The notes beneath the pieces were generated by a model. That model was not told where the DNA came from. It saw nothing but the letters and a program-made list of their open reading frames with translations, and searched no databases. DNA of 64,000 nt from NCBI RefSeq assembly GCF_900116295.1, contig NZ_FPAF01000014.1, positions 36,898-100,897 on the forward strand, written 5' to 3'. Numbering within the stretch: the first letter of the stretch is position 1; each line of letters begins with the position of its first letter. Of the stretch, positions 22,115-28,028 are shown in pieces. The position numbers were made by a program, and so were the translations under genes. Source of the stretch: Bacillus sp. 103mf. Its GTDB lineage: Bacteria > Bacillota > Bacilli > Bacillales > Bacillaceae_G.

Positions 22115-22513
22115 GTGGCTTTATTTAAAAGTTGGCAAAAACTTGCACGGGTTATTCGGGAGCAATTAGATTGCTTTTTTTATGAAAAGTTAATGCCTGC
22201 TCTAGAAGAAATATTATTTTCATCACAGTTTGCAAATTATATAGAATTTTATACAAAAAAAGGTGTCAAAGAATATATTGAATCTGAGGAATTTCAAAAC
22301 ATCATTTGCCTTATTTTAAAAGAATGTAATGTTTCTCCATTTAAAGAAATTGCGCAGCAATTGCTAGGAAAAGAAGTTGAAATTACTGTAACAGTTGGCA
22401 TTTTAACAGGTGTAATTTCACAAGTAGGAGATGATTTTTTAACATTACAAGAATCAGCTGGAAGCATTATTTTATTACCATTTACAAGTATTCTTTCAAT
22501 TCGTGAATTATAG
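22115..22513 (+). CDS. Small protein with DUF2642-like C-terminal segment
   Basis: 132 residues from GTG 22115 after GGGAGGAAAGG. The N-terminal 80 residues are helical, without membrane segments. The last 45 read LGKEVEITVTVGILTGVISQ and then FLTLQESAGSIILLPFTSIL, an SH3-like beta pattern also seen in the next gene, which I associate with DUF2642. It opens a run of six tightly packed genes (22115-28028), so it probably works with the sugar enzymes that follow. Exact function unknown; a coat or exosporium-associated role is only a guess. Confidence 0.65.
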   Translation: MALFKSWQKLARVIREQLDCFFYEKLMPALEEILFSSQFANYIEFYTKKGVKEYIESEEFQNIICLILKECNVSPFKEIAQQLLGKEVEITVTVGILTGVISQVGDDFLTLQESAGSIILLPFTSILSIREL

Positions 22514-22530
22514 GGATAGGAGGGAAGAAA

Positions 22531-22725
22531 GTGAAGTTTATTGATGCATTACGGTCTCATGTGGGACAACTTGCTCAAGTTGTACTTGTTGGAGAAGCTG
22601 TGACGGGAATTATTTTATCTGTAACAGATGGAGTAGTTATTATACGAACAGCTCCGTCTTATGGTCCACCAGAAGATGTTATTGTAAGAATTCCAATTGT
22701 TTCATATGTTCGATTGTATAGTTAG
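22531..22725 (+). CDS. DUF2642-like small protein
   Basis: 64 residues; GTG start (MKFIDALRSHVGQLAQVV) after AGGAGGGAAGAAA, 17 bases behind the previous gene. The sequence is almost only the compact beta domain: LVGEAVTGIILSVTDGVVII then IVRIPIVSYVRLY. It is a close structural echo of the C terminus of the gene before it, suggesting duplication and shortening. It lies 10 bases ahead of the first glycosyltransferase, so it is translated from the same mRNA. Function unknown. Confidence 0.65.
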   Translation: MKFIDALRSHVGQLAQVVLVGEAVTGIILSVTDGVVIIRTAPSYGPPEDVIVRIPIVSYVRLYS

Positions 22726-25514: not shown

Positions 25515-26476
25515 AAAAGCGATGTTTAATTACAGGAGGAGCTGGCTTTATTGGCTCTCATTTAGCCGAAGAGCTTTTGCATCGTGGCTATGATGTAACG
25601 ATTGTAGATAATTTTTATAAAGGAGAACGTAAATATCATTTAGAGTTAATGAAGAAAATTTCAACTGTAAAAGCAAGTGTGTTAGATAAAGAGAAAATTG
25701 AAAAACTGGTTCAAAGTCATGATGTCATATTTCATTTAGCGGCTATTTTAGGTGTAAGAAGCACGATGGAAAAAAGCGTTGAGCTCATTGAAACAAACTT
25801 TGACGGGACGAGAAATATTTTGCAAGCTGCTTTAAAAGGGAAGAAAAAAGTTGTATTTGCGTCCACATCTGAAGTGTATGGAAAAGCAAAACCACCTTTT
25901 TTAGAGGAGGGTGATCGTCTATATGGTGGAACTGCAAAAATTAGATGGAGCTATGCGATTTGTAAAACGTTAGAAGAAACGCTTTGTTTAAGTTACGCTC
26001 GCCAAGGATTGGCAGTAACAATTGTCCGATATTTTAATATATATGGACCACGCGCTAAAGATGGTCCGTATGCAGGGGTTATTCCGAGGTTTATTAGTGC
26101 AGCTTTGCAAGATAAAGCAGTTCCCGTATATGGGGACGGTGCACAAACGCGCTGTTTTACGTATGTAACAGATGCAGTAGAAGCAACAATTAGAGCAATG
26201 GATGAGAAAGTAAATGGTGAAATTATTAATATTGGTTCTGAACATGAAATTTCTATTCAAGAAGTTGCTGAAATTATTCGAAAGACAATTCAAAGTTCTT
26301 CGGAGATTATTTATCTTCCATTTGAGGAAGTATATCCTGATGGGTTTGAAGAAATTCCACATCGACGTCCGAGTGTAACGAAGTTAACTGCTTTACTGCA
26401 ATTTCAACCAAAGGTGTCATTTGAAGAAGGATTACAGAAAACCATCACTTGGTTTCGTGAAGAATTATATGGTTAA
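25511..26476 (+). CDS. NAD-dependent sugar-nucleotide epimerase/dehydratase (extended SDR)
   Basis: 321 residues, starting with the ATGA overlap to the dehydrogenase. The NAD site is GGAGFIGSHLAEELLHRG; STSEVYG and the active-site YAICK follow, then RYFNIYGPRA. The pattern is shared by UDP-glucuronate 4-epimerase, UDP-xylose synthase and UDP-GlcNAc 4-epimerases. Behind a UDP-uronate-forming dehydrogenase, the likely job is to epimerise or decarboxylate the UDP-uronic acid, giving the donor for one of the glycosyltransferases (inference from context). Confidence 0.83.
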   Translation: MKKRCLITGGAGFIGSHLAEELLHRGYDVTIVDNFYKGERKYHLELMKKISTVKASVLDKEKIEKLVQSHDVIFHLAAILGVRSTMEKSVELIETNFDGTRNILQAALKGKKKVVFASTSEVYGKAKPPFLEEGDRLYGGTAKIRWSYAICKTLEETLCLSYARQGLAVTIVRYFNIYGPRAKDGPYAGVIPRFISAALQDKAVPVYGDGAQTRCFTYVTDAVEATIRAMDEKVNGEIINIGSEHEISIQEVAEIIRKTIQSSSEIIYLPFEEVYPDGFEEIPHRRPSVTKLTALLQFQPKVSFEEGLQKTITWFREELYG

Positions 26477-28028
26477 GTCGTTATCTATTATTATTCCTGT
26501 ATATAATGAAGCCGATTCTATTCGAGAGGTAATCCTTTCTGCAAAGGAGCTGAATCCGCTTGAAGTTATTGTTGTTGCGAATGGATGTACAGATGATTCG
26601 GAACGAATTGCAAAAGAGCTGGGTTGTACAGTATTAAGTAGTAACGAAGTGTTTGGAAATGACGTCGGTCGTGCAGTCGGCGCCAAGTGTGCCAAGGGTG
26701 AAGTCTTGTTATTTTTAGACGGTGATTTTCCTATTCCTTCATCTAGCCTCAGTTTTTTTCTCAATCCCATTTTACATGGACAAGCAGACGTGATTCTAAA
26801 TAATTTTGACGCTTTATTTAAGAAAAAACAACGTCCGTATTCAATTACCGTCTGGCGACAAATTTTGAACGATATAGTGAACCGAGCCGATTTACAAATT
26901 GATTCAATTTTATCAGTACCGCATGCGATAACGAAAGAAGCGATAGAAAGTATTGGTTATGATGCATTATGTAATCCGATTGTTGCGCATGTTCGTTTAA
27001 TAACACAAAAATGGCGAATACAGAGGCACTGTGCAATTGATGTCATTACTCCAAACAAGTTTCGTCCAGCTGAGCATGAAGCATATGGGGATCAACTTGC
27101 ACATGCAGAGCAACGAATGATAGGGGATCATATAGAAGCATTGGGCGAATGGTTGGCTAATTATGATAGCCGAGGAGTATATACAGATGGAAATAGGAGA
27201 AGAGATATTGTATTAGCTTTGCAAAAGCTCGGTGATCAAGCATTGCCGCCGTATTATAAAGGTTGGGGTGTTCAATCTAATTTATATAATGGTAAACGAC
27301 TTTCTATTATCATTCCTGTTCAAAATGAAGAAATGACAATTGCAATGGTTATTCAAGAAGCACGTAAAATTGAACCGCTTGAAATTATCGTTCTTGTTAA
27401 TGGATCAAATGATCAAACAGCAACGATTGCAAAGCAGTGCGGAGCTACAACTGTTGTATATGAAGAAAGACTTGGAAATGATGTAGGGCGTTCTATAGGT
27501 GCTCAAATGGCTAAGGGGGATATTTTACTATTTATTGATGGTGATTTTGTGATACCTGCAAAAGATTTGTATCCTTTTGCCAAAGCGGTTGCGGACGGGC
27601 AAGATGTGGTATTGAATGATTTAAATTACTATTTGGATTTACGAGCGCCATTACACCTTGTTACGGCGCTAAAATATGCTTTAAACTTAGCTTGCAATCG
27701 AAAAGATTTAGGGATAGGTTCGCTAGTAGCTGTACCAAATGCGTTTAGTAGGAGTTGTTTAGAGTGTATTGGGTTTGATGCTTTATTATCTCCATGTGTA
27801 GCACAGGTAAAGGCGATATTAGCCGGCTTTTTAATTTCTTGTGTGCATCGCGTGGATGTGGATCAGCTGAATCGCATTCGTCCGAGCGAACATTTTGCAG
27901 TGAAAGGACATGCTCCTGCTGTACTTCGAATTATAGGGGACCATATAGAAGGTATGTCATGTGTGATAGAGGAACTTGGTGTTCGAGGTGGTTTTCATGA
28001 TGGAGGGCGTAAGAGGGAACTGGAATGA
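26469..28028 (+). CDS. Tandem-domain family 2 glycosyltransferase, second copy
   Basis: 519 residues from ATG 26469, overlapping the epimerase stop by 8 bases; a start at 26421 would lie deep inside the epimerase. Like the first copy it holds two GT2 modules: one with IIIPVYNEADSI, VVANGCTDDS and LFLDGD (near 82), one from about 276 with IIIPVQNEEMTI, VLVNGSNDQT and LFIDGD (near 355). Both end with the RxxGDH and DGxR pattern seen in the first copy (YTDGNRRRD; FHDGGRKRE). All four modules share GNDVGRAIGA or a close variant. Neither module keeps the Asp of VVDNGS. A terminator follows, closing the operon. Confidence 0.82.
   Translation: MVKSLSIIIPVYNEADSIREVILSAKELNPLEVIVVANGCTDDSERIAKELGCTVLSSNEVFGNDVGRAVGAKCAKGEVLLFLDGDFPIPSSSLSFFLNPILHGQADVILNNFDALFKKKQRPYSITVWRQILNDIVNRADLQIDSILSVPHAITKEAIESIGYDALCNPIVAHVRLITQKWRIQRHCAIDVITPNKFRPAEHEAYGDQLAHAEQRMIGDHIEALGEWLANYDSRGVYTDGNRRRDIVLALQKLGDQALPPYYKGWGVQSNLYNGKRLSIIIPVQNEEMTIAMVIQEARKIEPLEIIVLVNGSNDQTATIAKQCGATTVVYEERLGNDVGRSIGAQMAKGDILLFIDGDFVIPAKDLYPFAKAVADGQDVVLNDLNYYLDLRAPLHLVTALKYALNLACNRKDLGIGSLVAVPNAFSRSCLECIGFDALLSPCVAQVKAILAGFLISCVHRVDVDQLNRIRPSEHFAVKGHAPAVLRIIGDHIEGMSCVIEELGVRGGFHDGGRKRELE

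What the first reader, a model, noticed from the sequence alone, without database searches (positions are those of the whole stretch)
22115..28028. Six-gene sugar cluster with two double-headed glycosyltransferases, an undescribed glycan pathway
Two small DUF2642-like proteins, a glycosyltransferase of two GT2 modules, a UDP-sugar dehydrogenase, an epimerase and a second two-module glycosyltransferase are packed with overlaps and one terminator. All four modules share unusual blocks: GNDVGRAIGA in place of the usual helix after the donor site, and a C-terminal RxxGDH plus RGxxxDGxR unit. There is no flippase, polymerase or membrane glycosyltransferase. One hypothesis is a cytosolic glycosylation of a protein or soluble acceptor, maybe the small proteins themselves.
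Basis: partly seen in the sequence, partly recalled or inferred. Interest (0 to 1): 0.8.

Follow-up and report, generated by a model that had tools for sequence, protein, structure and literature searches.

The report
Sporulation-linked glycan gene cluster
Six neighbouring genes of a Bacillus-like bacterium look like a kit for building an acidic amino-sugar coating during spore formation; the sugar precursors resemble ones reported from Bacillus cereus, while the sugar-adding enzymes belong to a family found mostly in spore-formers for which I found no specific name.

Summary
The cluster is real: six compact genes (22115-28028) ending in a strong terminator, with two double-module glycosyltransferases (GTs). 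Four points change the reading. (1) The "epimerase" is nearest to UDP-glucuronate decarboxylases and the dehydrogenase to UDP-HexNAc enzymes; together they fit the UDP-GlcNAc -> UDP-GlcNAcA -> UDP-XylNAc route of B. cereus (paper not held, content recalled), so "undescribed pathway" is probably too strong. (2) The GT module has a family-specific C-terminal half. Of 398 Bacillota genomes 66 carry it, 64 of these with the sporulation protease YabG; in 54 of 59 with the single-module form it lies within 323 bp of yabG. (3) The six genes are not always together: all six in a row in 1 of 29 GT-positive genomes of the order of Priestia, P1-P2 beside the GTs in 13, dehydrogenase in 24, decarboxylase homologue in 11. 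(4) An element one base off the recalled sigma-K consensus precedes P1 in 15 of 15 clusters. Most likely it makes a spore-surface polysaccharide in the mother-cell cytosol. The link of the family to spore-formers is strong; product, chemistry, timing and location are inferred.

The parts
22034..22061 (+). conserved promoter-like element AC-N16-GTATANNNTR (near the recalled sigma-K consensus)
   Evidence: in 15 of 15 P1 upstream regions; in the control 13 of 235 ORF upstream regions, all 13 being P1; about 0.9 expected by chance in 64 kb; exact recalled sigma-K consensus 0 of 15
22076..22089 (.). inverted repeat GTTGTCCATACAAC between promoter element and ribosome site; also in G133
   Evidence: 1 match in the window, 0.01 expected
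22115..22513 (+). P1, 132 aa, N-terminal region plus DUF2642-like C-terminal domain
   Evidence: profile matches over 100 bits in 14 of 397 genomes, 13 of them beside the GT cluster
22531..22725 (+). P2, 64 aa, related to the P1 C-terminal domain
22736..24277 (+). GT1, two GT2-type modules (ORF also open from TTG 22697)
24267..25514 (+). DH, nucleotide-sugar 6-dehydrogenase, sequence of the UDP-HexNAc type
   Evidence: TIGR03026 436.6 bits; nearest solved structures Cap5O and 4r16, 185 bits each; UDP-glucose dehydrogenase 3vtf 119
25511..26476 (+). EP, SDR enzyme, probable UDP-uronate decarboxylase rather than epimerase
   Evidence: nearest solved structures UDP-glucuronate decarboxylase 4lk3/4gll/2b69, 180 bits; next 150 bits
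26469..28028 (+). GT2, two GT2-type modules (ORF also open from TTG 26421)
   Evidence: model of its second module
28025..28064 (+). intrinsic terminator hairpin overlapping the stop of GT2

Best explanation
A gene set for an acidic amino-sugar glycan of the spore surface, made in the mother-cell cytosol late in sporulation. DH oxidises UDP-GlcNAc to UDP-GlcNAcA; EP decarboxylates part of it to UDP-XylNAc; the four modules of GT1 and GT2, each a separately kept lineage, add these sugars in turn to an acceptor or growing chain without lipid carrier, flippase or polymerase. P1 and P2, two related small domains, probably tie enzymes or product to the assembling coat, or are the acceptor. Shown: gene set, family assignments, link of the GT family to YabG-bearing genomes, conserved upstream element, frequent pairing of the GTs with a UDP-HexNAc-type dehydrogenase. 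Inferred: substrates, linkages, timing, surface location, carrier-free assembly, roles of P1 and P2.
For: EP is nearest to UDP-glucuronate decarboxylases by 30 bits, DH to UDP-HexNAc dehydrogenases. A DH homologue of 300 bits or more lies in the fetched stretches of 24 of 29 GT-positive genomes of the order of Priestia. The GT family is in 66 of 398 Bacillota genomes, 64 of them with YabG (YabG in 205 of 398; Fisher p 9e-19, kinship not corrected); in 54 of 59 genomes with the weaker, single-module form it lies 103-323 bp from yabG. yabG of C. difficile is under sigma-K control (PMC3789822, passages). The promoter-like element precedes P1 in 15 of 15. In Paenibacillus and other loci the GTs lie by an ATP-grasp cluster whose one scanned member is YheC/D-like (15 of 39 loci), by a cluster whose one scanned member is a nucleotidyltransferase (26 of 39) and, in L117, a collagen-repeat protein. 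Distant P1-like domains lie within 2.5 kb of Coat_X genes in 4 of 37 genomes. The four modules each form a clade. The module model is nearest to GpgS.
Against: No expression, chemistry or localisation data. Exact recalled sigma-K consensus 0 of 15. YabG marks spore-formers, not the site of this glycan; 141 of 205 YabG genomes lack the GT family and 2 of 66 GT genomes lack YabG. The family is patchy: 29 of 397 in the order of Priestia, 1 of 19 in the family of G133. Only 19 of 37 genomes with distant P1-like domains have Coat_X, 4 of them close; G133 has none, and in G001 and G002 it lies on another contig than the cluster. G349, G288, G309 and G245 keep P1-P2-GT1-GT2 without DH in that cluster (G309 and G245 have a second locus with DH and EP). 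Identity with the published UDP-XylNAc genes rests on enzyme type and recall, not on accessions.
Confidence: 0.6

Rival explanations
1. Cytosolic glycosylation of a protein, perhaps P1/P2 or a coat protein, with a short oligosaccharide rather than a polymer.
For: P1 and P2 adjoin the GTs in 13 of 14 genomes with a strong P1 match, the 14th being a truncated P1; no export or polymerase family among the six; in 21 of 39 named loci a cluster of mostly very large proteins lies in the stretch (cluster 3; L009's is repetitive).
Against: Nothing marks acceptor sites in P1 or P2 (inspection only); four modules kept as separate lineages suit a repeat unit as well.
Confidence: 0.2
2. Vegetative extracellular polysaccharide or wall-polymer cluster with no special link to spores.
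For: UDP-sugar dehydrogenase plus GT genes are common in capsule and wall loci (established knowledge); the published polymer was, as I recall, recovered from culture medium.
Against: No lipid-carrier transferase, flippase or polymerase family among the six; family nearly confined to YabG-positive genomes and mostly beside yabG in its single-module form; conserved near-sigma-K element.
Confidence: 0.12
3. EP is a 4-epimerase (UDP-GlcNAcA to UDP-GalNAcA), so the glycan holds GalNAcA rather than XylNAc.
For: Same SDR superfamily; every NCBIfam score shown is below its curated cut-off, the highest being LegB, dTDP-glucose dehydratase and ArnA.
Against: Nearest solved structures are decarboxylases by 30 bits; the STSEVYG block seen in the aligned decarboxylases is [ST]SE[VI]YG in 11 of 11 full-length homologues (a twelfth row is a fragment), though I did not check the block in epimerases.
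Confidence: 0.15

Closest known systems
UDP-GlcNAc 6-dehydrogenase and UDP-XylNAc synthase of B. cereus subsp. cytotoxis NVH 391-98 (Gu 2010, JBC; title seen in reference lists; content recalled)
   Same: dehydrogenase of UDP-HexNAc type followed by a decarboxylase-like SDR gene
   Different: accessions not compared because the paper is not held
[quoted passage not shown] title seen in reference lists; XylNAc/GlcNAcA structure recalled)
   Same: would need the two predicted UDP sugars and several GT activities
   Different: whether that paper names this cluster could not be read
B. subtilis spore crust glycan genes (sps, cge, ytc, yfn; recalled; only the start of an sps abstract seen)
   Same: nucleotide-sugar enzymes and GTs acting on the spore surface
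   Different: other sugars and, as far as I recall, no two-module GT of this family
GpgS, glucosyl-3-phosphoglycerate synthase (GT81, retaining, soluble: recalled)
Two-domain synthases (chondroitin, heparosan synthase)
   Same: two GT domains in one protein (recalled); profile hits
   Different: match only in the donor half

Membership tests
GT2 superfamily (PF00535) | Pfam match over cut-off, two stretches per protein | tested here: met
   140 and 130.9 bits, cut-off 23.3
GT family defined here | full-length match of the module profile, C-terminal half included | tested here: met
   window modules 297-326 bits, but they are part of the profile. Separation: 40 of 41 generic loci gave 45-74 bits, 39 ending by position 118, one at 183; the 13 best of 59 single-module relatives gave 140-156 bits, ending at 222-230; all 59 range 109-156
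nucleotide sugar dehydrogenase TIGR03026 | score over curated cut-off | tested here: met
   436.6 against 189.8 bits
UDP-GlcNAc 6-dehydrogenase | acts on UDP-GlcNAc | not testable with these tools
   sequence only
UDP-uronate decarboxylase (UXS/UXNAcS-like) | nearest to known decarboxylases; shared STSEVYG block | tested here: met
UDP-uronate decarboxylase (UXS/UXNAcS-like) | decarboxylates UDP-GlcNAcA | not testable with these tools
   none
DUF2642 (PF10842) | score at or over gathering cut-off | tested here: not met
   P1 15.6 against 22.7 bits, P2 no match; 2 of 4 distant P1-like proteins scanned reach it
sigma-K promoter | AC-N16/17-CATANNNTA (recalled) | tested here: not met
   0 of 15 exact; 15 of 15 with C or T first in the -10 box and TA or TG at its end
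GpgS-like retaining GT-A | fold clearly nearest to GpgS | tested here: inconclusive
capsule/wall polysaccharide locus with lipid carrier | initiating transferase, flippase, polymerase in the cluster | tested here: not met
   no such family among the six proteins

The most novel reading that the evidence does not exclude
A sporulation glycosyltransferase family without a model of its own in the libraries searched, single-module beside yabG in one branch and multi-module in Bacilli, builds spore glycans by carrier-free assembly in the mother-cell cytosol. In Bacilli four old modules act as a cytosolic polymerase for a GlcNAcA-containing chain, with module GT2a specific for XylNAc: intact where the decarboxylase is present in this cluster, decayed where it is absent. 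P1-P2 form a scaffold that couples the enzymes to the coat.
Probability: 0.35. Interest if true: 0.75.

Novelty: new variant of a known kind. Interest (0 to 1): 0.58.

Why it matters
Spore-surface glycans influence adhesion and persistence of spores (established knowledge), yet many of their genes are unassigned. A GT family of which 64 of 66 sampled bearers are YabG-positive, and which lies next to yabG in most single-module cases, is a ready, testable set of candidate spore genes. If the two-module enzymes polymerise without a lipid carrier they would also be useful soluble polymerases for rare amino sugars.

Tried and rejected
An early sigma-E candidate (ATA-N17-CATACAAC, note) was dropped: of the 14 other upstream regions compared only G133 shares its CATACAAC part. 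Sigma-70 and terminator pattern scans gave no more than chance (19 against 23.9; 1 against 3.8) and missed the terminator that folding showed. Patterns with wrong spacing or end gave no match and were corrected; the strict sigma-K pattern matched twice in the window, neither at this cluster.

That all six genes always travel together was rejected. The link of intact GT2a with EP is kept only as a hint: the window (297 bits), G133 (272) and one of four G178 copies (229) are intact; in the nine genomes with DH but no EP in this cluster GT2a scores 72-120 bits. A search for EP elsewhere at E 1e-40 found none in six of these nine and weak ones (37-38% identity) in G049, G088, G222. The tree suggests one shared decay, on a long stem where placement is unsure. 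In loci of the type DH-EP-GT the second module is the decayed one although EP is present, so there is no general rule.

Plasmids: no match of GT2 in 72,556 records at E 1e-15. Literature: ten searches over openly licensed PMC papers; the two naming DUF2642 found 0 papers; the GT family has no name to search by, so nothing follows for it. PMC12700454, PMC9658361 and PMC3325205 (passages only) showed nothing on the cluster. The species of the window was not determined; gene content suggests the B. cereus group by recall, and no genome is held. Foldseek itself and a P1 model could not be run.

Full report
WHAT IS THERE. Six + strand genes at 22115-28028: P1 (132 aa), P2 (64 aa), GT1 (two modules), DH, EP, GT2 (two modules), closed by a strong terminator on the stop of GT2. 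By my reading of the translations (names recalled, not scanned) the neighbours are a pyruvate-kinase-like gene upstream and pflB/pflA-like and UgtP-like genes downstream.

PRECURSOR ENZYMES. DH passes the nucleotide-sugar dehydrogenase model (436.6 bits) and is closest to UDP-HexNAc enzymes (Cap5O and 4r16, 185 bits each) rather than UDP-glucose dehydrogenase 3vtf (119 bits). EP is closest to UDP-glucuronate decarboxylases (180 bits), next an unspecified SDR at 150, ArnA about 121; the NCBIfam scores shown for it are all under cut-off. The simplest joint reading is UDP-GlcNAc -> UDP-GlcNAcA -> UDP-XylNAc. That route was reported from B. cereus subsp. cytotoxis (Gu 2010) and a spore-associated polysaccharide from pathogenic Bacillus (Li 2016); I saw only the titles, in reference lists, and recall the rest.

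LINK TO SPORULATION. Of 398 genomes of the phylum of Priestia, 66 carry the family at E 1e-30 and 205 carry YabG; 64 both, 2 GT only, 141 YabG only, 191 neither (Fisher p 9e-19, kinship not corrected). Of the 59 genomes with the weaker, single-module form, 54 have it 103-323 bp from yabG; of the other five, two have it about 5.2 kb away, one on another contig, one has a YabG whose place was not listed, one has none. YabG of C. difficile is controlled by sigma-K (PMC3789822, passages).

CONSERVATION OF THE CLUSTER. In the order of Priestia 29 of 397 genomes have the family at E 1e-25; in the family of G133 1 of 19 has GT2. I fetched stretches of all 29 and of two Brevibacillus genomes (35 stretches). 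Of the 29: P1 and P2 beside the GT in 13; DH at 300 bits or more in 24; EP at 200 bits or more in 11; all six in a row in 1 (G133), where glutaminase-like and UgtP-like flanks (recalled names) also resemble the window; the G178 locus is broken over contigs. A P1 profile over the same order gave 14 genomes above 100 bits: 13 beside the GTs and a truncated copy in G071, where the rest of the cluster is missing. Tree of 71 of 106 modules (190 aa or shorter, and nine genomes, left out; bootstrap not settled): GT1a, GT1b, GT2a and GT2b each group across species (support 96/90, 98/100, 86/99, 95/83). GT2a is decayed in nine of nine genomes with DH but without EP in this cluster and intact in the window, G133 and one of four G178 copies; this looks like one event.

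REGULATION. AC-N15/16-GTATANNNTR stands before P1 in 15 of 15 sequences, several of them close relatives. In a control of 235 ORF upstream regions of the window and 13 loci it occurs 13 times, always before P1; the other 222 include the G133 P1 itself, whose mechanical start is too early. The pattern was read from these sequences, so 15 of 15 is not independent; its absence elsewhere and presence in a Brevibacillus relative (G004) are more telling. It differs from the recalled sigma-K consensus at the first base of the -10 box, and in most at its last base.

P1 AND P2. Related to each other. Weak P1-like matches occur in 37 further genomes; 19 of these have Coat_X and 4 have it within 2.5 kb. 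G133 has no Coat_X match, and in G001 and G002 it lies on another contig.

HOW IT PROBABLY WORKS. Shown: gene content, families, association with YabG-bearing genomes, conserved upstream element. Inferred: mother-cell expression, UDP-GlcNAcA and UDP-XylNAc as donors, carrier-free assembly by four specialised modules, P1-P2 as coupling or acceptor proteins. The precursor route and perhaps the polymer are known; the GT family as a whole, its place next to yabG and its pairing with P1-P2 are what may be new.

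Noticed in passing
window 22076-22089: Perfect inverted repeat GTTGTCCATACAAC between promoter element and ribosome site, shared only with G133 among the 15 compared; possible operator.
   Followed up: partly
L165-L177, and 54 of 59 genomes by coordinates: A single-module GT of this family sits 103-323 bp from yabG; some of the ten stretches viewed also show KsgA-like and Veg-like genes (names recalled).
   Followed up: yes
L008:3356-8536 and L009:306-4892: Very large proteins (1727 and 1528 aa) beside Paenibacillus GT clusters; L009's is visibly repetitive, L008's has no Pfam match.
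   Followed up: partly
L112, L113 (G178) and L114 (G039): Expanded arrays of two- and three-module GTs with shortened copies, and one 995-aa protein with four modules.
   Followed up: no
L153:9389-9802 (G071): Truncated P1 alone between UgtP-like and glutaminase-like genes, where G133 has the whole cluster: an apparent natural loss.
   Followed up: partly
window 41008-46266: 1752-aa protein with a signal-like start and repeated segments, apparently ending in a phosphoesterase-like region (by eye); not scanned.
   Followed up: no
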